Assembly: GCA_025774615.1 (NCBI GenBank)
Contig: JALGVQ010000016.1
Span: 1-21,868, forward strand
DNA length: 21,868 nucleotides
Origin: a bacterium
GTDB lineage: Bacteria; Blakebacterota; Blakebacteria; Blakebacterales; Blakebacteraceae
Reading direction: 5' to 3'
Shown here: positions 3,122-21,712 of the stretch, one piece after another
Layout of the letters: each line of letters starts with the position of its first letter
Position numbering within the stretch: the stretch's first letter is position 1
Made by a program: the position numbers and the translations under genes
Notes under the pieces: model-generated
The model's database searches: none
The model's input: the letters and a program-made list of their open reading frames with translations, nothing else
What the model was told of the DNA's origin: nothing

Positions 3122-4906
3122 ATGCGCAGAGCCCTCCCCGCCGTCATCCTCACCCTGGTCATCGTTGCTCTGTTCTCGATCACTTCACCCGCAGAATCTC
3201 TCGCTATCATGACGCTTCAGGGCCAGCAGGGGCCTGAAGTCGATGGAACAAGCGGGATGCGTGACATGCTGGAGCGGTACGGAACCGACCGGGCCGGAGT
3301 GAACCGGTTCTACAACCTCAGCAACTCAGACGTCCGGCTGGAGAGGATGACTGCGTTCTACCACAGCTGGCAGGACGAACTCGAAAAGGTCGACTTCAAC
3401 AGGATGGGCCAGACCGGCAGAATCGACTATCTCCTCTTCAAGAACCATCTCGCGAGGGAGCTGAGCAGGATCGACCATTTCGTGGAGCGGATCGAAGGAG
3501 CGATCGCCCTGCTTCCCTTCGCCGACACGATCATCGCGCTGGAAGAGTCACGTCGCAGGATGGAGCCGCTCGACCCCGAGAAGGCGGCCATCCTGCTCGA
3601 GGAGATGACCGACGGGATCAAGGAACTGAAGAAGGCGCTGGAAGACAGCCTGAAGGCAAAGAAGAGTGATGGGGAGTTCCATATAAGGAAGTCGATAGTG
3701 AACAGGGCCGCCAGGATGGCAGGGGATCTGCAGCGGACCCTCAAGCACTGGTACGAGTACTACGGCGGTTATGTCCCCCTCTTCAACTGGTGGACGAGCG
3801 ATCCCTATGAGAAGTGTGATGAGATCCTCAAGGAGTACATCAAGCTCCTGCGGGAAAAGATACTTGGTTACAAGGAAGGAGAACCCGATCCCGTCATCGG
3901 GGACCCTATCGGCCGGGATGCCCTGCTCGACGAACTCACCTTTGAGATGATCCCCTACACGCCGGAGGAACTGATCGCACTGGCCGAAGAGGAGTACGCC
4001 TGGTGCGAGAGTGAATACAAACGGGCCGCGCGTGAACTGGGATACGGTGATGACTGGCACGCCGCCCTGGAATACGTCAAGACCCTCCACGTGGCGCCGG
4101 GGAAACAGGATTCCCTCATCCGGGAACTGGCTGTAGAGGCGATCGCTTTTCTCGACGAGCACGATCTGGTGACGATCCCCGACCTGGCCAGGGAGACGTG
4201 GCGGATCGAGATGATGAGCCCGAAGGCCCAGGAGACGACCCCCTTCTTCACTTACGGCGGCCAGAAGATCAACGTCTCCTACCCCACTGACGGCATGACC
4301 AATGAGCAGAAGATCATGAGTATGCGCGGCAACAACATCCACTTCTCACGCGCCACCGTGCAGCATGAACTGATCCCCGGCCATCACCTGCAGGGATTCA
4401 TGGGCGAACGGTACAGAACCTGGCGCTCACCATTCCAGACCGCCTTCCTCGGTGAGGGTTGGTGTCTCCATTGGGAGATGCTCCTCTGGGATCTCGGGTT
4501 CCCGAAGACACCGGAGAACCGGATGGGCATGCTCTTCTGGCGGATCCACCGCTGCGCCAGGATCATCGTCTCACTCAAATTCCATCTGGGAGAGATGACT
4601 CCCGAAGAGATGATCGATTTCCTCGTAGAAAAGGTCGGTCATGAGCGGGACGGGGCCACGAGCGAAGTCAGGCGATACGTGGGTGAATCGTATGGTCCAC
4701 TCTACCAGTGCGCCTATCTGGTGGGCGGGTGGCAGCTGCGGGGTCTTTACGAAGAACTCGTGGAATCCGGCCGGATGACCGACCGGGAATTCCACGATAC
4801 GGTCCTCCGTGAAGGTTCGATCCCGGTCGAAATGATCCGCGCGAGTCTCACCGGCCAGCTACTGAACAGGAATTTCAGATCAGAATGGAGATTCAAAGGG
4901 CGTTGA
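3122..4906 (+). CDS. Secreted DUF885-family protein (zinc metallopeptidase-like)
   Basis: The protein has 594 residues from the ATG at 3122, chosen because an AGAGGAG ribosome binding site lies 8-9 nt upstream and because it begins a clean signal peptide (MRRALPA, a hydrophobic core, then a cleavage region near SPAES). A start at 3059 would add 21 basic and acidic residues before the signal and lies within a hairpin. DUF885 proteins have a gluzincin-like HExxPGH motif, here HELIPGH at 415-421, with a likely further metal ligand in GEGW (E445). They are predicted peptidases of unknown substrate, and this one should act in the periplasm or outside. The helical N-terminal half (about 45-330) and C-terminal catalytic half match the family size. 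The function as a peptidase is inferred from the motif, not established. Confidence 0.87.
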   Translation: MRRALPAVILTLVIVALFSITSPAESLAIMTLQGQQGPEVDGTSGMRDMLERYGTDRAGVNRFYNLSNSDVRLERMTAFYHSWQDELEKVDFNRMGQTGRIDYLLFKNHLARELSRIDHFVERIEGAIALLPFADTIIALEESRRRMEPLDPEKAAILLEEMTDGIKELKKALEDSLKAKKSDGEFHIRKSIVNRAARMAGDLQRTLKHWYEYYGGYVPLFNWWTSDPYEKCDEILKEYIKLLREKILGYKEGEPDPVIGDPIGRDALLDELTFEMIPYTPEELIALAEEEYAWCESEYKRAARELGYGDDWHAALEYVKTLHVAPGKQDSLIRELAVEAIAFLDEHDLVTIPDLARETWRIEMMSPKAQETTPFFTYGGQKINVSYPTDGMTNEQKIMSMRGNNIHFSRATVQHELIPGHHLQGFMGERYRTWRSPFQTAFLGEGWCLHWEMLLWDLGFPKTPENRMGMLFWRIHRCARIIVSLKFHLGEMTPEEMIDFLVEKVGHERDGATSEVRRYVGESYGPLYQCAYLVGGWQLRGLYEELVESGRMTDREFHDTVLREGSIPVEMIRASLTGQLLNRNFRSEWRFKGR

Positions 4907-8346: not shown

Positions 8347-8949
8347 ATGGATGTGAAACTGGACAGTCTGATAGAGAAGCTGCGGACGGAGGGCGTGGAG
8401 GAAGCACAACAGGCCTCCCGCGAGATGATGGACAAATCCCGCGAAGAATCCGCCGCGATCATCGAGGAAGCACGCAGTGAAGCGGAGAAGATAATCGAGG
8501 AGGCCAGAGCAGAGGCTGCCAGGCTCCAGGAAAACGGTGAGCTGGCCCTCCGGCAGGCAGCCCGTGATTCCGAACTCCTCCTCAAGACCCGGATAACCGA
8601 TACGCTGGACCGGGTATTCCGCCGCAAGGTCGCCGAGTCTCTCACACCCGAGACGATGAAAGAGATCATCCAGCGGATCACTGACCAGTGGCAATCGGGC
8701 GCGACCGCTGAACTCTCTCTTAATGAGGATGAGACGCAGAAACTGGAAGGACTCCTCTTCACGGGGGTCGGAGAAGAGCTGAAAGACTCGATCTTCATCA
8801 GGGCGAGTAACGACATCTCTCATGGATTCCGGATCGGAATGAAGGATGACAGCGTGTATTTCGACTTCACGGATGAGAGTATCACCGAAGCCCTGATGGC
8901 ATTCCTTCAGCCGCGTCTGAAAGCCATCCTGGACGGGCAGGATGGATAA
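8347..8949 (+). CDS. atpE: V/A-type ATPase subunit E (peripheral stalk)
   Basis: This 200-residue protein has a long charged N-terminal helix (about 10-75, rich in Glu, Ala and Arg, with repeats such as IIEEARSEAEKIIEEARAEA) followed by a mixed alpha/beta C-terminal domain. This is the layout of subunit E, which forms the peripheral stalk that holds the A3B3 head static. It is the first gene of a seven-gene ATPase operon and overlaps the next gene by 8 nt. No dedicated subunit G/H partner gene is visible in the operon. The ribosome binding site (GGATCGAG) is modest. The 'atpE' symbol here follows V-ATPase usage, not the F-type c subunit. Confidence 0.9.
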   Translation: MDVKLDSLIEKLRTEGVEEAQQASREMMDKSREESAAIIEEARSEAEKIIEEARAEAARLQENGELALRQAARDSELLLKTRITDTLDRVFRRKVAESLTPETMKEIIQRITDQWQSGATAELSLNEDETQKLEGLLFTGVGEELKDSIFIRASNDISHGFRIGMKDDSVYFDFTDESITEALMAFLQPRLKAILDGQDG

Positions 8950-9439
8950 GCATTACTACCTGATCGCCCAGCTCCCGACGCTCGAATTCGATCGGCCGGC
9001 GGAGATGTCGATCGGGCTGTTCACAGAGGAAGCGAAGAAGTGGTTGAGGTTCAGTGATTTCGTGAAGCTCATGCACATCTACCTCTTCGACACCTCCCAC
9101 GACGACCCGGGCCCGGCATTGCTGAGGAAATTCAAGAAGTTCGAATATGAGTTCCGGAACGACCTGGCCCTCTGGCGGAGGGCGCAGAGCGAGGGAGAAG
9201 AGTACAAGCCGGACAGCTTCACCCCTGCCCTGTTGAAAGACGGGAATCCCCTTGAGATCGAGAAGCGACTCCTCAAATACCGGTGGGACTTCATAGATGA
9301 AAGAGAGAAGGACCACCACTTCGATTTCGACTTCCTGATTATCTACTACCTGAAGCTGCAGATACTCGACAAACTCGCCCTCTTCGATCAGGAGAGGGGA
9401 ATGGAAACCTTCCGTGAAATCAGCAGGGTGACAGCATGA
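8942..9439 (+). CDS. DUF2764-family protein of the V-type ATPase operon
   Basis: This 165-residue protein begins YYLIAQLPTLEFD, the typical opening of DUF2764 proteins, which occur between subunits E and A in V-ATPase operons of Chlamydiae, spirochaetes and Bacteroidetes. The protein is soluble, mostly helical and charged, with no transmembrane segment. Its conserved position, and the absence of subunits C and F from the operon, suggest that it is a structural subunit, perhaps the central-stalk or C/d-like link. This is inference; I know of no firm biochemical assignment. It overlaps E by 8 nt and A by 4 nt, indicating coupled translation. Confidence 0.82.
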   Translation: MDKHYYLIAQLPTLEFDRPAEMSIGLFTEEAKKWLRFSDFVKLMHIYLFDTSHDDPGPALLRKFKKFEYEFRNDLALWRRAQSEGEEYKPDSFTPALLKDGNPLEIEKRLLKYRWDFIDEREKDHHFDFDFLIIYYLKLQILDKLALFDQERGMETFREISRVTA

Positions 9440-11166
9440 ACCAACGAATCGGTGAGATCGTCGGCATCAGTGGAAACATGATCAACGTGAAATTCGAAGG
9501 CGCCATCTCGCAGAACGAGGTGGGCTTCGCGATCAGCGGTGATGAGAGGCTGAAGTCCGAGGTCATCAAGATCCAGAACGACATCGCGTCCCTCCAGGTA
9601 TACGAGAGCACCAAGGGATTGATGATCGGTGACAGGGTGGAATTCAGCTCGAATATGCTCTCGATCCAGCTCGGGCCTGGACTGCTCACGCAGATCTTCG
9701 ATGGTCTCCAGAATCCGTTGCCTGAGATCGCGGAGAAGTATGGTTTCTTCCTTCCCCGCGGAGTCGTACTCGACTCTCTCGGTGATGATCGCCCCTGGCA
9801 TTTCACGCCGATGGTCAAGCCGGGAGATGTGGTCATCGCCGGAACAAGAATCGGTCACGTACCGGAGACCCAGTTCACCCATTACATCTTCGTACCCTTC
9901 AATTTCCTGGGAGAGTACACAGTCGAGTCGATCGTCGATGAGGGGGACCACCCGGTCAACGGCACCATCGCCACGATCAAAGATGATCGCGGTCAGACGA
10001 TCGAACTTTCGATGCAGTTCAACTGGCCGGTGAAGATCCCGATCAAGAACTACCAGCAAAAGCTGATGCCGACCGAGACACTCAACACCAACGTCCGGAT
10101 CATCGACACCTTTTTCCCGGTGGCCAAGGGTGGCACGTACTGCATTCCCGGACCATTCGGCGCCGGCAAGACGGTGCTCCAGCAGATCACCAGCCGCCAC
10201 GCCGATGTGGACATCGTGATCATCGCCGCCTGCGGGGAGCGGGCCGGCGAGATCGTGGAAACGATGCGGGAGTTCCCCGAACTGACCGATCCGAAGACCG
10301 GCCGTGCCCTCATGGAGCGGACGATCATCATCGCCAACACCAGTTCGATGCCGGTCGCGGCCCGCGAGGCGTCGGTCTACACCGCCACTACACTGGGTGA
10401 GTATTATCGCCAGATGGGACTGAACGTGCTGCTGCTGGCCGATTCCACATCCCGGTGGGCACAGGCGATGCGTGAGATGTCGGGGCGTCTGGAGGAGATC
10501 CCGGGTGAAGAGGCATTCCCGGCCTATCTCGAATCACGGATCGCGGAATTCTACGAGCGGGCAGGGATCGTCGAACTCTCAGACGGCGAGTTCGGGAGCC
10601 TCACTATCGGCGGTACGGTAAGCCCGGCCGGTGGGAACTTCGAGGAACCGGTGACGCAGTCGACCCTGAAGGTGGTCGGTGCCTTCCACGGCCTCTCCCG
10701 TGAACGTTCCGACGCACGCCGCTACCCGGCGATCCATCCGCTGGAGAGCTGGAGCAAGTACGAGAGTTTTGTCCCGGCCGAATCAATCAGAATAGCCAAA
10801 GATTTCCTGTTCAAGGGTTCAGAAGTACATCAGATGATGATGGTCGTCGGTGAAGAAGGAACTTCGATAGAAGACTTCATCATTTACCTGAAATCAGAGT
10901 TCGTCGATTCTGTCTATCTGCAGCAGAACGCGTTCGACGAGGTAGACGCCGCCACTTCACCGGAGCGGCAGACACTCGTCCTGCAGAAGATCGGTGAGAT
11001 CCTTGATGTCGAGTTCCAGATCGAGAACAAGGAGGAGGCGCGGAAATTCTTCTACGACCTCCGGCAGGCCTTCATCGACCTGAACTACATCCAGATGGGA
11101 ACCGACGAGTTCACCCGGCAGGAGGAAGTCATCAACGACCTCATCAAAGGGGCTGTCGAGGCATGA
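9436..11166 (+). CDS. atpA: V/A-type ATPase catalytic subunit A
   Basis: This 576-residue protein is the usual length for subunit A. It has an N-terminal beta-barrel domain (1-70), the A-specific non-homologous insert (about 110-190), the P-loop GPFGAGKT (239-246), the catalytic region [10 protein letters not shown], and the arginine-containing [16 protein letters not shown] block. It hydrolyses or makes ATP at the A/B interfaces of the cytoplasmic head. The start codon overlaps the previous stop (ATGA), and the stop overlaps the start of subunit B by 4 nt. All key nucleotide-binding residues are present. Sequence quality and codon use match the neighbouring genes. Confidence 0.97.
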
Positions 11167-12587
11167 GGAAAGTCTACAACAAGATCCTGAGCATCTCAGG
11201 GAACGTCATCTCGGTAGAGGCAGAAGGTATCGCCTACGAGGAACTTGCCGAGATCACTTCGTGGCGGGGCAAGTCACTGGCCCAGGTCATCAAACTTGAG
11301 GGTAACATGGTGTACCTGCAGGTATTCGCGGGAAGCCGTGGGATCTCCACCGATGATGAGATCAGATTCCTGGGTCACCCGATGCAGGTTTCGTTCTCCG
11401 ACGACATGCTCGGCCGGATCTTCAATGGCAGCGGTGAGCCGCGTGACGGTGGTCCCCCGCTGACCGAGAACGTGATCGAGATCGCCGGCCCACCGGTGAA
11501 CCCGGCCAAGAGGATCGTCCCCAAGCGGATGATCCGTACCAACATACCGATGATCGACGTCTTCAACTCGCTCGTGGCATCCCAGAAACTGCCGATCTTC
11601 TCCATCTCCGGGGAGCCGTACAACGAGCTGCTGGCGCGGATCGCGATGCAGGCCGAAGTCGACATGATCATCCTCGGCGGGATGGGACTCAAATTCGACC
11701 AGTACATGTTCTTCCGAAACATCCTCGAAGAGGGTGGCGCGCTCGGACGGTCGATCTTCTTCATCCATACCGCTGACGAACCGGTCGTGGAGAGTCTCAT
11801 GGTTCCCGACCTGGCGCTGGCGGTTGCCGAGAAATTCGCGCTCCAGGGCAAGGAGGTCCTCTGCCTCCTGACCGACATGACCAACTTCGCTGATGCTCTG
11901 AAAGAGATCGCCATCACCATGGAGCAGGTACCCTCTAACCGTGGGTACCCGGGTGACCTCTACAGCCAGTTGGCCTCGCGTTATGAAAAGGCTGTCGACT
12001 TCGAGGGATCGGGCGCCATCACCACGCTGGCGGTCACGACCATGCCTGGGGATGACGTGACCCACCCGGTACCCGATAACACCGGTTACATCACCGAGGG
12101 TCAGTTCTATCTCAAGAACGGCCGTATCGAACCGTTCGGTTCGCTGAGCCGGCTCAAGCAGCAGGTCAACGACGATACACGCAGCGACCACCGCGCCATC
12201 ATGGACGGAATGATCCGCCTCTACGCTCTCTACAAGGAGACCGAGGAGAAGCGGGCGATGGGATTCCGCATGAGCTCCTGGGACCAGAAACTCCTGAAGT
12301 ACGGCGGCAGGTTCGAAGCGGGAATGATGGACCTCTCGGTGAAGATCTCGCTGGAGGACGCACTCGATCGCGGCTGGGAGATCCTTGCTGAATGCTTCAC
12401 TCCCGAAGAGACCGGTCTGAGGACTGAACTGATCAGGGAGTACTGGCCGGTCGACCTGGACGCAGCAGAGGAAGAGTCTGCAGAAGAGTCCGCCGATGAC
12501 CAGGCCGAGGCTGAAGAAACAGCAGTGGAGGAGACCACCGAAGCCGACACAGAGACTACTGACGAGGTGACCAAACTCGATGGCTAA
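11163..12587 (+). CDS. atpB: V/A-type ATPase regulatory subunit B, with acidic C-terminal tail
   Basis: This 474-residue protein is the non-catalytic partner of subunit A. It has the N-terminal barrel ([18 protein letters not shown]), the [16 protein letters not shown] segment where the P-loop is degenerate, as expected in B, and the [15 protein letters not shown] and [19 protein letters not shown] blocks. From residue 433 the protein ends in a 42-residue tail made almost only of Glu, Asp, Ala and Thr, which ordinary B subunits of about 430-460 residues lack. It overlaps A by 4 nt and D by 8 nt. The tail is probably disordered, and its role is unknown. Confidence 0.96.
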
Positions 12588-13194
12588 GGTCCGGCTGACA
12601 AAGAACGAGCTCAAGAAGCAGAAGGATAACCTCAAGAGGTTTACCCGTTATCTGCCCACGCTTGAGTTGAAGAAGAAGCAGCTGCTCCTGGAGATCCGCC
12701 GCATCCAGAATGAGGTCGAAGCGCTCGATACCGCCAGCAGGCGGCTTGAGCAGGAGATTTCCGCCTGGTCAGGTGTCTTCGCGGATAGATTCGATCTGAA
12801 CGAGTACATCAAGATCGAAGATGTCCTGCGCGGGCGCGGCAACATCGCCGGGATCGACATCCCCACCTTCGACAAGGTGATCTTCGAGGATATCCCGTGG
12901 GATTACTTCGAGGTCCCCTTCTGGGTCGATACCGGGATCGTGTCCATCAAGGAGCAGATAAGCCGGAGGATCGAACAGGATATCCTGCGGGAACAGGAAG
13001 AGATCGTACGGAATGAACTGCGGATAACCATCCAGAGAATCAAACTCTTCGAAGAGGTCAAGATTCCTGAGTCGAAAGAGGCTATCCGTATCATCCAGAT
13101 CTTCCTGGGAGACGGCATGACCGCTGAAGTGGTTCGGGGCAAGATCGCCAAGAACAAGATCGCCAAGAAGAGAGCCCTGGAGGCCAGCCGATGA
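12580..13194 (+). CDS. atpD: V/A-type ATPase subunit D (central rotor stalk)
   Basis: This 204-residue, almost entirely helical protein has long N- and C-terminal coiled-coil segments (about 1-65 and 125-204) and a short central region. It matches subunit D, the shaft that turns inside the A3B3 head. The N-terminus [18 protein letters not shown] and the lysine-rich C-terminal helix are family features. The ATG overlaps the end of atpB by 8 nt, and the stop overlaps atpI by 4 nt. Subunit F, its usual partner, is not encoded in the operon. Confidence 0.93.
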
Positions 13195-15002
13195 TCGCCC
13201 GAATGCAGCAAGTCACGCTCCTGCTCAGCGCGAGAAAACGGGAAGCGGCCCTCAGAAGACTCCGTACTCTCGGTGTCCTGCATGTCAAGAACATGGCCCC
13301 TCCCCTCTCAACTGACATCGATGCCCTTGTCGCACAACTCGGCGAACTCGAGAAAACAATACTTGTTCTGAGTGAGTCGACCGGAAGAGATGAGAGCGAG
13401 GCGACGTCCTCCCCTGCCGAAGGCACATCAGATCCACGCGAAGCGATCACCACCATTCTCAGCCTGGCGCAGGAACGCAGTACTCTGGAGGGCAACCTCA
13501 CCGAGCACCAGCAGATCAATGGATGGTACGAGCGCTGGGGTGATGTTTCCCGCAGCTCGATCAGGCAGCTGCGCGACGCCGGTCTCTGGGTGCGTCTCTA
13601 CGTCGGTGACCGGAAGACGATCAGAGGCCTGCCGCCGGAGACACAGATATTCGAAGAACGGGATGAAACGGGCACGGTCTTCTTCGCTTACTTCGGGGAG
13701 ACGCAGATAGACAGACTCGACTTCCGTGAGGAATCGGTCCCCGAGATCGAGGCTCCTGAACTCCGTCGCATGCTCGCAGAATGGGAAGCACGCATCGGGG
13801 AGATCGATGAAGAGATCTTCGCGATGAAGTCGGAAGAGTCGGGCCTGCTTGAACTGCGGTCGGAACTCGAGAAACAGCTCGAGCTCTCGAACGTGCTGCA
13901 CGGTATGGGCGAAGAAGAACAGTTCGTGTTGCTGCAGGGATTCTGTCCCGTCGATACGGTTGAATCCGTGAAGGAAGCAGCCGACGAACACGATTGGGCA
14001 TATCTGGTCGAGGAGCCGGAAAACCCTGATGAAGTACCGACCCTGATCCGCAATCCGAAGTGGCTGAGGATCATCGAGCCGATGTTCAACTTTCTCGGCA
14101 CCAAACCGGGATATGCCGAATTCGATATCAGCATGCCCTTCCTGATCTTCTTCAGCCTTTTCTTCGCGATGATCGTCAGCGATGCCGGCTACGGCCTCAT
14201 CTTCGTCTCGCTCGGATTCTTCGCACAGAAGAAGTTCGGCAAGAAGGCGCCGAAGGAACCGTTCATCCTGCTGTATGTGCTGGGTGGCGCAACCATGCTC
14301 TGGGGGCTGGTTTCGGGCAACTGGTTCGGTTTCGAGGGGATCGGGCGTCTGCCGATCTTCGAATGGGCACTCATCAACGCAATCAGCGCATTCCCGGCAG
14401 AAGCCGAACAGGCGGCCAATCTCAATTTCATGATGTACCTCTGCTTCTTCATCGGCGCGATCCACCTGACTGTCGCGCACGCCATGCGGGCGTTCCGGGT
14501 CATCAACTCACCAAAGGCACTGGCCGAAGTGGGCTGGATCTTCATCGTCTGGACGCTCTTCTTCGTGGCGGGGACGCTTGTCATCAGCAAGGATTTCCCC
14601 GGCATCGGGATGCCGCTGCTCATCACGGGATCCCTGCTGGTACTGCTCTTCGCCAACTTCCAGAAGAACATCGTTAAGGGGTTCCTGACCACCCTCGGTG
14701 ATCTGCCTCTCACGATGATCAGTTCCTTCTCGGACGTGGTCTCCTACCTGCGGCTCTTTGCGGTGGGGTACGCGTCGGTGACTGTGGCTGCGAGTTTCAA
14801 TGGTATGGCTGTCGGTGACGGCATCACCGGGATAGTAGCGGGTCTGGCAGCGGCCATAACGCTTTTCCTGGGGCACACGCTCAACATCGTGCTCTGTCTC
14901 ATGGGCGTGATCGTCCATGGAGTCCGTCTCAACATGCTGGAGTTCTCCGGACATATGAACATGCAGTGGTCCGGACAGGAGTACCTGCCGTTCAAGGAGT
15001 GA
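13191..15002 (+). CDS. atpI: V/A-type ATPase membrane subunit I (a-subunit homologue)
   Basis: This 603-residue protein has a cytosolic, coiled-coil-rich N-terminal half (1-300) and a C-terminal half with seven to eight transmembrane helices, starting near FDISMPFLIFFSLFFAMIVSDAGYG. The SDAGYG motif and the SDVVSYLRLFAVGYA helix with the essential arginine (R521) are diagnostic. This arginine faces the rotor ring and gates ion movement. The protein is at the short end of the 600-660 residue family range. It overlaps atpD by 4 nt and is followed by a structured 93-nt gap before atpK. Confidence 0.95.
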   Translation: MIARMQQVTLLLSARKREAALRRLRTLGVLHVKNMAPPLSTDIDALVAQLGELEKTILVLSESTGRDESEATSSPAEGTSDPREAITTILSLAQERSTLEGNLTEHQQINGWYERWGDVSRSSIRQLRDAGLWVRLYVGDRKTIRGLPPETQIFEERDETGTVFFAYFGETQIDRLDFREESVPEIEAPELRRMLAEWEARIGEIDEEIFAMKSEESGLLELRSELEKQLELSNVLHGMGEEEQFVLLQGFCPVDTVESVKEAADEHDWAYLVEEPENPDEVPTLIRNPKWLRIIEPMFNFLGTKPGYAEFDISMPFLIFFSLFFAMIVSDAGYGLIFVSLGFFAQKKFGKKAPKEPFILLYVLGGATMLWGLVSGNWFGFEGIGRLPIFEWALINAISAFPAEAEQAANLNFMMYLCFFIGAIHLTVAHAMRAFRVINSPKALAEVGWIFIVWTLFFVAGTLVISKDFPGIGMPLLITGSLLVLLFANFQKNIVKGFLTTLGDLPLTMISSFSDVVSYLRLFAVGYASVTVAASFNGMAVGDGITGIVAGLAAAITLFLGHTLNIVLCLMGVIVHGVRLNMLEFSGHMNMQWSGQEYLPFKE

Positions 15003-15009
15003 CTCGGGG

Positions 15010-15076
15010 CGGGTGAATACCCGACCGGGTGATCCCGGACCGGCAGGAAATGACAACATTCGTACGGTACGTACCG
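15010..15076 (+). promoter_or_regulatory. Cluster of three short hairpins between atpI and atpK
   Basis: This is the only real gap in the ATPase operon. It contains CGGGT-GAAT-ACCCG (15010-15023), CCGGG-TGAT-CCCGG (15025-15038) and the perfect palindrome CGGTACGTACCG (15065-15076), which ends 9 nt before the ribosome binding site AAAGGGTG of atpK. None has a U-tract. They may stabilise the atpK message or adjust its translation, since K is needed in many more copies than the other subunits. Confidence 0.4.
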
Positions 15077-15095
15077 AGCAAGAAAGGGTGACGAA

Positions 15096-15536
15096 GTGAT
15101 TGAAGGACTTGGAGACCTCAATGTTTCTCTGGTACTCGCGGCGATAGGATCAGCCTTCGGTACCGGTGTTGCGGGTATGGCGGCGATCGGAGCCTGGAAG
15201 AAAGCGTTCTCACAGAACAAGGCTGCTCCCTTCATCCTCGTGGCGTTCGTGGGCGCGCCCCTCTCCCAGACGATCTACGGCATGATCCTGCGGAACGCCA
15301 TCCAGGCCGCGGAGCTACCCGCCGAAACCTGGGCGGCACAGTTCGTTATCGGCGCTCTCGCCGGCGTGGCGATGGGTCTGTCGGCCTTCATGCAGGGTCG
15401 CGCAGGAGCCAAGGCTTGCGATGCCCAGGCCGAGACAGGCAAGGGATTTGCCAACTACATCATGGTGGTGGGTGTCATCGAGACCGTGGCGCTCTTCGTC
15501 ATGGTGTTCGCGATGACCGCTCTGCCCAGCGTCTGA
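15096..15536 (+). CDS. atpK: V/A-type ATPase subunit K (rotor ring proteolipid, Na+-type site)
   Basis: This 146-residue protein starts at a GTG preceded by AAAGGGTG. Four transmembrane helices in two hairpins are visible, as in Enterococcus hirae NtpK. Compared with the NtpK Na+ site (T64, Q65, Q110, E139), this protein has S57 and Q58 in PLSQTIYG, Q100 in FMQGRAGA and E129 in VIETVAL, so every side-chain ligand is matched (Ser for Thr). This supports a Na+-binding rotor ring, though H+ use cannot be excluded. It is the last gene of the operon. A 6-bp stem (15546-15562) follows without a U-tract. Confidence 0.93.
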   Translation: MIEGLGDLNVSLVLAAIGSAFGTGVAGMAAIGAWKKAFSQNKAAPFILVAFVGAPLSQTIYGMILRNAIQAAELPAETWAAQFVIGALAGVAMGLSAFMQGRAGAKACDAQAETGKGFANYIMVVGVIETVALFVMVFAMTALPSV

Positions 15537-18423: not shown

Positions 18424-18771
18424 TTACAGGTCTCTCTCTGATCCGTTAGCCCATCTCTCCCAATCCGGCACGTAGATGGACATGAGGCTCTTGAACAGTT
18501 TCCCGTGATTGGGGATTCGTAGATGAAGAAGCTCGTGCACGATGGCATATCTCTGAAAGCCACTGCACTCTTTGAGAAGATCTTCGCTGAAGCTGATCCA
18601 CTTCCCTGGTGAACACGAAGCCCACTTGCTTCGCATCTTCTGGACACGGATCTGGGAGGGTTTCACCTTCAGCCTGTCAGCCCATTCGCGGACCTCAGTC
18701 TTGAAGTCTTCCTTCTCTCGAGGTGTACGTCTCTTGCCTTGTGCGCCATAGCCTTTGAGCGAAGGCTGCAT
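18424..18771 (-). CDS. YgjP/DUF45-like zinc metallopeptidase linked to the restriction locus
   Basis: This 115-residue protein contains the zinc motif HELLH (79-83) with the third ligand H89 in PNHGKLF, preceded by the family segment RSKWASCSPGKWISFSEDLL. This places it in the YgjP-like group (Pfam DUF45, M48-related clan). It lacks the longer N-terminal part of E. coli YgjP-type proteins, a short form often found beside hsdR in type I restriction loci. Its ATG shares one base with the hsdR stop codon (TGATG), so translation is coupled. The substrate and role in restriction are unknown; a role in turnover of the restriction enzyme is possible but is speculation. Confidence 0.87.
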   Translation of the reverse strand: MQPSLKGYGAQGKRRTPREKEDFKTEVREWADRLKVKPSQIRVQKMRSKWASCSPGKWISFSEDLLKECSGFQRYAIVHELLHLRIPNHGKLFKSLMSIYVPDWERWANGSERDL

Positions 18772-21023
18772 CAGGTCACCTCCGCGCGAAGCAACTTTTC
18801 TGCAACCAGAACCATGCTTTCTTTACCCACCAGGGGCAGGAGCACCTTATACAGCTCAGCCTTCAACTGGCGGAGTTCGGCGGCATTGTCCCGGTGATGC
18901 GGGAATCTGTCGAAGATCACGCGGATGACGGCAGTAGTTCTTTCCGGCTGTGCAACAGATTCCTTCTTCAACGTCCAGAAGAAGGAGAAAGTCGTATCGT
19001 CGAAACCCATGTGCTCTTGTAACTGCCGTGCCTCGACGATTTCACGAATGAGCGCTTCGATCTTGTTCAGGGCTTCTTCGGTGGTCTCCTGTCGTTCATC
19101 GTACGCCTCCATGATCGCTTCCGCCCGATCCCCGATCGGCTTCAGATAAGGATTACTATCAGCATCTTCCAGAATGGTCTTTCGAATGCTGTTCACCAGG
19201 TTGATGATCTTGCCCTTGTCGGAACCACTGTTCTCGTTGATCGCTGCCAACGTCTTCTCATCAATCTTGACGACCGAAAGTGTGCTTTCGAGGCCGTAAC
19301 TCTCCACCTTTTCGCGGACCAGTTCCTCTGTCTTCCTTGCAACATCACCGTAGAGGCTGGTTTTCTTGCTGAAGGCATTGCGGATGATCTTGAACAACAA
19401 CGACAGACAACTGAAGTCGTCGATGAAGTCCCGCAGATCAGGCGACGGAGACAGGATTTCGTACAGTGTCTCGATTTGCCTGTAGAATTTGTAGAAATCC
19501 TCCCGCTTCTCCTGCTCGAAAAATGTCGTTATAGCTCTCTCGACTGTCTTGTCGTCAATCGGACCCCGGCATAGCTTCACATACTCCTGAGCGGGACCAG
19601 TCATGAGTTCCCTGAACCTGTCAAACAACATATCCAGGTCCTCGATCACGCCGCTCACGATATCTGAATCGAAGGCAAGCGCCGTTTCCAGCTTCTCAAA
19701 GATACCGACAAAATCGACTACCAATCCGCAGGGCTTCTGTGTTTCAGGATCATGCTCATGCGGGCGGTTCACGCGAGCAATGGCCTGCAGCAGAACATGG
19801 TCACGCATGGGTTTGTCGAGATACATGCAATAGAGGATCGGTGCGTCAAACCCGGTCAAGAGCTTGTCGGTCACAATAAAAATCTTCGGCTCTACATCGG
19901 CTTTCAGAAACAGCTTGCGGGCATTCTTTTCAGATTCCGGTGAAATCTGATGCTGGTAAACAAGCGGATATTTCTCGCTATCATGCTGTGCGGATGTATA
20001 GATCGGCACTGAGTATTCATGCGGGAGAACCTTATCCAGAGCCTCTTTGTACAGGGCGCATGCTTCACGGTCGACAGCCACGAGGAATGCCTTGTAGCCC
20101 AGTGGTTCGACGTTCTCCGAAAAGTGCCTGGCGACGAATGCAGCGACTTTATCGATCCGGTCGTCCGCCTTCAGGAACGTTTTCAGACGCATGGCGTGGT
20201 CGAGAATTTTGTTGAGTTCATCAACATCACTCACGCCCTCGGCCTGCGCGAGATCGAGGAACTCCTGCTCCAACTGTTCACGTGGAACGCGTATCTCGCT
20301 TGGAGCCAGCGTATACTTGAGCGGTACGGTTGTACCGTCCTCAATCGACTCCGCTATTGAATACTTGTCGAGATATCCCTGCTCATCCTCTTTGCCGAAC
20401 GTCTTGAAAGTCCCTTTACCATAGGCTGTCTTGTCTATGGGCGTACCCGTGAAGCCGATCAGCGTAGCTTTCGGCAATGCTCCAAGCAGGTAGTTTCCTA
20501 GGTCGCCACCCGTGGTCCGGTGCGCCTCATCGACCAGCACAAAGATGTTCTCGCGCGTGTTGATATCCTTCCGAATACCGTCAAACTTGTGGATCATCGA
20601 TACAATCAGGCCTCGAAAATCTGAGGCCAGCAGCTCGCGAAGCTTCTGCTTGCTTGTCGCGTACTCGATGCTGATGTCATGGGAGGACATCTCGCCAAGG
20701 ATGCGCTCTACCCATCCGGCAAGCTGGCCCTCCAGTTCGTTGCGATCGATCATCAGAATCACGGTAGTTTTGCCGAAGGTATCGCGATTCTTGAGGATCA
20801 GACGCGCCGCTGAGATCATCGTGAACGTCTTGCCCGAGCCCTGGGTGTGCCAGACCAGACCCGTTGTGCGTGTCGCGTCCGTGCAGCGCGCCAGGATGCA
20901 ATCGATCGCTCGGGTCTGATGCTGTCGGAGAACGGTCTTCTGCAGTTCGTCTTCCTTATAGAAAAACAGAATCCATTCCTTCAGCATGGTCAGAAAGCGC
21001 TGCCTGTCGAAGAAGACTTTCAC
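18771..21023 (-). CDS. hsdR: Type I restriction endonuclease subunit R, motor and C-terminal part (frameshifted gene)
   Basis: This 750-codon open frame is the larger part of hsdR. It holds the DNA-translocating helicase motor: Walker A QGSGKT (61-66), DEAH box (165-168), GFTGTPI (190-196), motif VI QAIARVNR and a helical C-terminal region that contacts the methylase. The family N-terminal nuclease domain is missing from this frame. It is in the adjacent open frame 21020-21712, and a 29-bp tandem duplication at 21052-21109 separates the two. Without the duplication the frames join as NLFNWRDEEDGNYEKKVK, the expected family sequence. The nominal GTG at 21023 is therefore probably not a true start. 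The region is less GC-rich and uses codons differently from the ATPase genes, which suggests lateral acquisition. Confidence 0.92.
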   Translation of the reverse strand: MKVFFDRQRFLTMLKEWILFFYKEDELQKTVLRQHQTRAIDCILARCTDATRTTGLVWHTQGSGKTFTMISAARLILKNRDTFGKTTVILMIDRNELEGQLAGWVERILGEMSSHDISIEYATSKQKLRELLASDFRGLIVSMIHKFDGIRKDINTRENIFVLVDEAHRTTGGDLGNYLLGALPKATLIGFTGTPIDKTAYGKGTFKTFGKEDEQGYLDKYSIAESIEDGTTVPLKYTLAPSEIRVPREQLEQEFLDLAQAEGVSDVDELNKILDHAMRLKTFLKADDRIDKVAAFVARHFSENVEPLGYKAFLVAVDREACALYKEALDKVLPHEYSVPIYTSAQHDSEKYPLVYQHQISPESEKNARKLFLKADVEPKIFIVTDKLLTGFDAPILYCMYLDKPMRDHVLLQAIARVNRPHEHDPETQKPCGLVVDFVGIFEKLETALAFDSDIVSGVIEDLDMLFDRFRELMTGPAQEYVKLCRGPIDDKTVERAITTFFEQEKREDFYKFYRQIETLYEILSPSPDLRDFIDDFSCLSLLFKIIRNAFSKKTSLYGDVARKTEELVREKVESYGLESTLSVVKIDEKTLAAINENSGSDKGKIINLVNSIRKTILEDADSNPYLKPIGDRAEAIMEAYDERQETTEEALNKIEALIREIVEARQLQEHMGFDDTTFSFFWTLKKESVAQPERTTAVIRVIFDRFPHHRDNAAELRQLKAELYKVLLPLVGKESMVLVAEKLLRAEVT

Positions 21024-21712
21024 CTTCTTTTCATAGTTTCCGTCTTCTTCGTCCCTCCAGTTGAAGAGATTCTTGCGATCTCCCTCCAGTTGAAGAGATT
21101 CTTGCGATCAAGATTCCAGGTTACACCGTAGTAGAAGTCGATCAGATGCGTGATGTCGAAAACCTGGGGTGCGGTCAGCATTTCCGGAGTTTCGTGATGA
21201 TATTCCCGGATCTGGATCAAGCCCTCTTCAATGCCCTTGGCTCTGGTCGCATTCTTGGTTTCCACGATGGCAACGGGGATCCCGTTGATCAGGAACATCA
21301 CATCTGCGCGATTCGTTTCCTGTCCGTTTGTGTATTGCCACTCATCCGTGACGTGGAACGTGTTTCGATCCGGCGTTACGAAATCGACAACCGTGACATT
21401 CCGTTCTCGTTTCTCGCCTTCGTCGTAGACACTCTGCTCCCCGCGCAGCCATGCCAGGATTTCCGCATTTCCCTCAATCGTGTTTCGTACCGCCTCGATC
21501 CTGCGAATTACGTCACCGGCATTGCCTGCAGTAATCAGTCCGGGATTCAGTTCAACCAGCTTCTCTTCGAGAACCCTGTTGAATAGAAGCCCGCCTTCGC
21601 CCTTCCGAAACGCCACCGCTTCCGAACGTGACACATACGTCCAACCCGCTTCCTCTGCATAGCGAATCAGCGGAGCCTGGACAGTTTTGTATTCGCTCAG
21701 TTTCTGCATCAC
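21020..21712 (-). CDS. hsdR: Type I restriction endonuclease subunit R, nuclease part (frameshifted gene)
   Basis: This is the 5' part of hsdR, starting at GTG 21712 (GAGG 9 nt upstream) or at the adjacent ATG 21709. It carries the nuclease domain of HsdR: D137, then E151 and K153 in VAIVETKN (the PD-ExK core), and the following QxxxY motif (Q167 to Y171). After NLFNW (205-209) the frame enters the second repeat copy and ends in 21 unrelated residues before a stop at 21020. Only the nuclease domain would be made, without the motor, so DNA restriction should be abolished in this form. The intact protein would have about 970 residues. No hsdM or hsdS gene is seen within the window. Confidence 0.9.
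   Translation of the reverse strand: MMQKLSEYKTVQAPLIRYAEEAGWTYVSRSEAVAFRKGEGGLLFNRVLEEKLVELNPGLITAGNAGDVIRRIEAVRNTIEGNAEILAWLRGEQSVYDEGEKRERNVTVVDFVTPDRNTFHVTDEWQYTNGQETNRADVMFLINGIPVAIVETKNATRAKGIEEGLIQIREYHHETPEMLTAPQVFDITHLIDFYYGVTWNLDRKNLFNWREIARISSTGGTKKTETMKRR
21052..21109. repeat. Exact 29-bp tandem duplication inside hsdR
   Basis: Bases 21052-21080 and 21081-21109 are identical, with no extension of identity on either side. The unit begins TCCCTCCAG and ends TTGCGATC. Because 29 is not a multiple of three, two copies shift the frame, while one copy (or four) would keep hsdR open. It is a recent slippage or recombination product, since the copies have not diverged. It could also be an assembly or amplification error. 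Confidence 0.95.

What the first reader, a model, noticed from the sequence alone, without database searches (positions are those of the whole stretch)
21052..21109. hsdR is switched out of frame by an exact 29-bp tandem duplication
The two reading frames of hsdR meet exactly at a perfect 29-bp direct repeat. Removing one copy joins nuclease and motor domains through NLFNWRDEEDGNYEKKVK, the expected HsdR junction. Because the copies are identical and adjacent, the event is reversible by slippage or recombination. It could be an on/off (phase-variable) switch of restriction, a recent loss under phage or self-restriction pressure, or an assembly error.
Basis: partly seen in the sequence, partly recalled or inferred. 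Interest (0 to 1): 0.75.

Follow-up and report, generated by a model that had tools for sequence, protein, structure and literature searches.

The report
Likely assembly error inside restriction gene
A restriction-enzyme gene looks broken by a perfect 29-base doubled segment, but the same assembly carries many such doubled segments, including one in a normally essential ribosome gene and one around a scaffold gap, so this is most likely an assembly mistake and not a biological on/off switch.

Summary
Window 21052-21109 is an exact, exactly two-copy 29-bp tandem duplication. It puts the HsdR nuclease frame (21712-21020, minus) and motor frame (to 18771, minus) out of register. All 78 homologues from the genome-contig scan that cover the site read through in one frame, and none has a repeat there. 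The phase-switch interpretation is not supported. The window is one whole contig of a fragmented MAG (324 contigs, 82% complete). In 1.25 Mb sampled from this MAG I found 19 exact, blunt two-copy duplications of 20-85 bp, against 3 in 1.19 Mb around hsdR in 80 other assemblies. Imperfect duplications are equally common in both. The exact ones show no preference for keeping the reading frame. They break unrelated ordinary genes (msrBA, a sugar-binding protein, a ROK kinase, a methyltransferase) and the only der/engA, a GTPase essential in model bacteria. Another contig has 13 Ns between two identical 114-bp flanks, the published signature of a scaffolder failing to merge overlapping ends. Most likely, 21052-21109 is such an unmerged join and hsdR is intact in the organism. 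Reads were not available, so a real recent duplication is not excluded.

The parts
21052..21080 (-). 29-bp copy adjoining the motor-domain frame
   Evidence: exact identity with 21081-21109
21081..21109 (-). 29-bp copy adjoining the nuclease-domain frame
   Evidence: exact identity with 21052-21080
21020..21712 (-). hsdR 5' frame, HSDR_N nuclease domain with D137...E-x-K; runs into an out-of-frame stop after the repeat
   Evidence: PF04313 E=4.8e-29; motif
18771..21023 (-). hsdR 3' frame, SF2 motor and C-terminal domains; Walker A, DEAH, TGTP and QxxxRxxR motifs intact
   Evidence: PF18766, PF04851, PF22679, PF11867; TIGR00348; motifs
18424..18771 (-). YgjP-like metallopeptidase gene directly downstream of hsdR; its start overlaps the hsdR stop
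   Evidence: PF01863 E=1.8e-24

Best explanation
The 29-bp duplication is most likely an assembly artefact. Two contig ends that overlapped by 29 bp were joined end to end without collapsing the overlap, so the overlap is printed twice. The organism most likely carries a single copy and an uninterrupted hsdR, the restriction subunit of an ordinary Type I restriction-modification system. Shown: the exact blunt repeat, the uninterrupted homologues, the genome-wide excess of the same kind of repeat, the hit in der, and the scaffold gap with an unmerged 114-bp overlap. Inferred: that the hsdR joint arose the same way, although it has no Ns.
For: Rate: 19 exact two-copy duplications with 0-1 bp joint homology (20-85 bp) in 1.25 Mb of this MAG, against 3 in 1.19 Mb of 80 relatives' loci, binomial p about 0.001. 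Only the exact class is in excess; 80-99% identical duplications are equally frequent in both. Selection: periods mod 3 are 7/7/5, so there is no bias towards keeping frame. Target: the same kind of duplication splits der/EngA, whose KH domain is the only one in the genome, and msrBA and a Peripla_BP_4 protein inside a domain. Mechanism: L234 (contig C293) 4665-4677 is 13 Ns between identical 114-bp flanks inside a permease gene, the error described for IDBA-UD and CLC scaffolds in PMC7111523. hsdR is otherwise intact: dN/dS about 0.05 in the N part against L031 and all motifs present.
Against: There are no Ns at the hsdR joint. I had no reads, assembler name or coverage. The control is loci around hsdR from other MAGs, not random regions of a MAG built by the same pipeline. 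der essentiality comes from model bacteria and was not tested here. Some exact duplications in this genome may be real, and relatives have a background of about 2.5 per Mb.
Confidence: 0.85

Rival explanations
1. A real, recent tandem duplication inactivated hsdR in the sampled strain: a plain loss-of-function allele, in principle able to revert.
For: The copies are exact and the rest of hsdR is undamaged and conserved, as expected for a very young event. Restriction genes are often lost (established knowledge).
Against: It would need the same event to have hit about 19 sites in 1.25 Mb with no bias towards keeping frame, including der. The joint has no microhomology.
Confidence: 0.09
2. An evolved phase-variable on/off switch of restriction, flipped by gain and loss of the 29-bp copy.
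For: Tandem duplication inside an ORF is a known route to high-frequency phase variation (pneumococcal type 3 capsule, Waite 2001, reference 20 in PMC3784515).
Against: None of the 78 genome contigs homologues covering the site has a repeat there. There is no repeat tract or flanking microhomology at the site. The feature is not specific to hsdR.
Confidence: 0.03
3. A functional split HsdR: the nuclease frame stops at a TGA that overlaps a GTG start (GTGA, 21023-21020) of the motor frame, so two coupled proteins are made.
For: The GTGA overlap exists.
Against: The N product carries a 20-residue out-of-frame tail, and no genome contigs homologue is split at this point. One such overlap is easily chance.
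Confidence: 0.02

Closest known systems
Scaffolding local assembly error: overlap between flanking sequences not merged (Chen et al. 2020, PMC7111523)
   Same: An exact duplicate of an overlap on both sides of a join; the L234 gap in this same MAG matches the description.
   Different: At hsdR there are no Ns between the copies, so either the Ns were closed or the ends were concatenated directly (inferred).
Intragenic tandem-duplication phase variation, pneumococcal type 3 capsule locus (Waite et al. 2001, cited in PMC3784515)
   Same: A tandem duplication within an ORF breaks the frame and can revert precisely.
   Different: There the variation was observed in living populations. Here there is one consensus sequence, and the same mark lies in many unrelated genes.
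Phase-variable Type I restriction-modification (hsdS inversion in S. pneumoniae, PMC4948785; HsdM1 of H. pylori, PMC10810217)
   Same: A Type I restriction-modification gene.
   Different: Those switch hsdS by inversion or affect hsdM expression; no such structure is found here.
Type I restriction enzyme R subunit (HsdR, TIGR00348)
   Same: All domains and motifs are present and conserved.
   Different: The assembled frame is broken at 21052-21109.

Membership tests
Type I restriction enzyme R subunit (HsdR) | N-terminal PD-(D/E)xK nuclease domain | tested here: met
   PF04313 E=4.8e-29; DVMFLINGIPVAIVETK
Type I restriction enzyme R subunit (HsdR) | SF2 translocase motor with Walker A, DEAH, TGTP and motif VI | tested here: met
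   PF18766 and PF04851; motifs
Type I restriction enzyme R subunit (HsdR) | Both domains in one uninterrupted frame | tested here: not met
   As assembled, the frame is broken at the repeat; all 78 genome contigs homologues covering the site are uninterrupted
Type I restriction enzyme R subunit (HsdR) | Cognate hsdM and hsdS nearby | tested here: inconclusive
   The contig ends 156 bp upstream of hsdR. One HsdM is on another contig and is only 24-29% identical to HsdM at relatives' hsdR loci. No HsdS found in the 82% complete MAG
Phase-variable contingency gene | Mutable repeat retained at the site in relatives | tested here: not met
   No tandem repeat at the site in any homologue
Phase-variable contingency gene | Both states present in the population | not testable with these tools
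   No reads or second assembly of the population
Phase-variable contingency gene | Mutation focused on particular loci | tested here: not met
   The same exact duplications lie in unrelated genes across the genome, including der
Scaffold-join duplication artefact | Exact, exactly two-copy, joint homology no more than random, many loci, frame-neutral | tested here: met
Scaffold-join duplication artefact | Ns at a join flanked by unmerged identical ends in the same assembly | tested here: met
   L234 4551-4791; not at the hsdR site itself
Scaffold-join duplication artefact | No reads support the two-copy joint | not testable with these tools
   No reads available

The most novel reading that the evidence does not exclude
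The duplications are real: this lineage has an unusual mutational process that makes blunt 20-100 bp tandem duplications across the genome, so that many genes, hsdR among them, flicker on and off.
Probability: 0.04. Interest if true: 0.65.

Novelty: not a real feature. Interest (0 to 1): 0.06.

Why it matters
Frame-breaking perfect tandem repeats in MAGs can look like phase-variable switches. A whole-assembly count of exact duplications, compared with imperfect ones, plus a check for hits in essential genes, helps separate the two without reads. This MAG's gene calls should be treated with care: extrapolating 15 per Mb gives about 50 such joints in 3.3 Mb.

Tried and rejected
A closer relative was sought: only 4 genomes of this phylum are held and none of the other three has this hsdR. 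No other copy of the site is in the genome. An old pseudogene is rejected because both halves are conserved and show strong purifying selection where it can be measured. A duplication made by slippage between short direct repeats is disfavoured because there is zero joint homology. A general excess of spaced direct repeats is rejected: 9.5 against 10.9 per Mb. Clustering of duplications at contig ends was looked at by eye only and was not conclusive.

Full report
Observation. The repeat is exactly as described: 21052-21080 equals 21081-21109, and the period-29 match extends over exactly 58 bp, so nothing beyond the two copies matches at the joint. On the minus strand the HSDR_N frame (21712-21020) ends at a TGA after a 20-residue out-of-frame tail, and the motor frame is open from the second copy to 18771. 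Pfam and NCBIfam place the halves at HsdR positions 4-200 and 215-665.

Relatives. A scan of genome contigs gave 80 loci with related hsdR, up to 82% identical. In all 78 that hold both halves, the two halves lie in one frame with no internal stop, usually with the same 9-codon spacing, and none has a tandem repeat at the site. The two flanks therefore represent one ordinary gene, and a repeat at this position is not a retained feature of the family. Nuclease and helicase motifs are intact, most of the seven closest comparisons contain no gaps (at most one per half), and dN/dS of the N part against the nearest relative is about 0.05, so there is no decay elsewhere. That leaves a very recent event or an artefact.

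Context. The window is the whole contig C242 of a 324-contig, 82% complete MAG. The contig ends 156 bp upstream of hsdR, so hsdM and hsdS of this operon are not on it. The only HsdM found in the MAG lies on another contig and is 24-29% identical to HsdM proteins at relatives' loci. No HsdS was found.

The decisive test. If the duplication were a switch, it should be particular to hsdR or to a few loci. I sampled 141 stretches (1.26 Mb, of which 8.6 kb read N) of the same MAG and counted exact tandem duplications, using the 80 relatives' loci (1.19 Mb) as control. The MAG has 22 exact duplications of 20-100 bp against 5 (p about 0.002). For those with 0-1 bp of joint homology the counts are 19 against 3 (p about 0.001). 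Duplications of 80-99% identity are equally frequent in both sets. A real mutational process should also leave older, diverged copies, and surviving ones should favour multiples of three. Here the excess is in exact copies only and the periods are 7/7/5 across the three residue classes.

Targets. The other joints lie in unrelated genes. A 76-bp copy in contig C27 (L139:3814-3965) puts the KH domain of Der/EngA out of frame: TIGR03594 1-367 is in one frame and 345-432 in another, and the KH domain occurs only once in the genome. Der is described as an essential GTPase in B. subtilis (title of PMC3466195). An 85-bp copy splits msrBA, a 29-bp copy splits a Peripla_BP_4 protein, a 37-bp copy truncates a ROK kinase, and 38-bp and 61-bp copies interrupt a PEMT-like methyltransferase and probably a Gfo/Idh/MocA protein. 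A consensus genome with its only der broken in the same way is hard to read as the state of a living population.

Mechanism. In contig C293 (L234) a gap of 13 Ns at 4665-4677 is flanked on both sides by the same 114 bp, inside a permease gene. [quoted passage not shown] The N-free exact duplications are most simply the same failure with the gap closed or set to zero; this last step is inferred. Assembly is a known source of false pseudogenes in bacterial genomes (PMC11017572).

Limits. No reads, coverage or assembler identity were available, and a control MAG of the same pipeline could not be sampled. The control loci are biased to hsdR neighbourhoods. I therefore put the artefact at 0.85 and leave about 0.09 for a real recent inactivation and 0.03 for a switch.

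Noticed in passing
L139:3814-3965 (contig C27): Exact 76-bp tandem duplication puts the KH domain of the only Der/EngA out of frame.
   Followed up: yes
L234:4551-4791 (contig C293): 13 Ns flanked by identical 114-bp sequences inside an amino-acid permease-like gene: unmerged scaffold overlap.
   Followed up: yes
L223:9182-9239, L164:5924-6094, L217:5362-5436, L238:4569-4690, L130:3965-4040, L140:16320-16389, L179:17228-17304: Further exact two-copy duplications in or beside genes of the same MAG, most of them frame-breaking.
   Followed up: partly
21020-21023: The stop of the 5' hsdR frame overlaps a GTG start of the 3' frame (GTGA), by chance a coupled-start layout.
   Followed up: partly
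18424-18771: A YgjP-like metallopeptidase gene overlaps the 3' end of hsdR.
   Followed up: no
L002:3-1430 (contig C96 start): A second, contig-edge-truncated HsdR-like fragment of a different subfamily in the same MAG.
   Followed up: no
8347-15536: Apparent V/A-type ATPase operon in the same window, read from the ORF translations only.
   Followed up: no
13140-13169: Exact in-frame 15-bp tandem duplication (CAAGATCGCCAAGAA) near the end of the 12580-13194 ORF.
   Followed up: no
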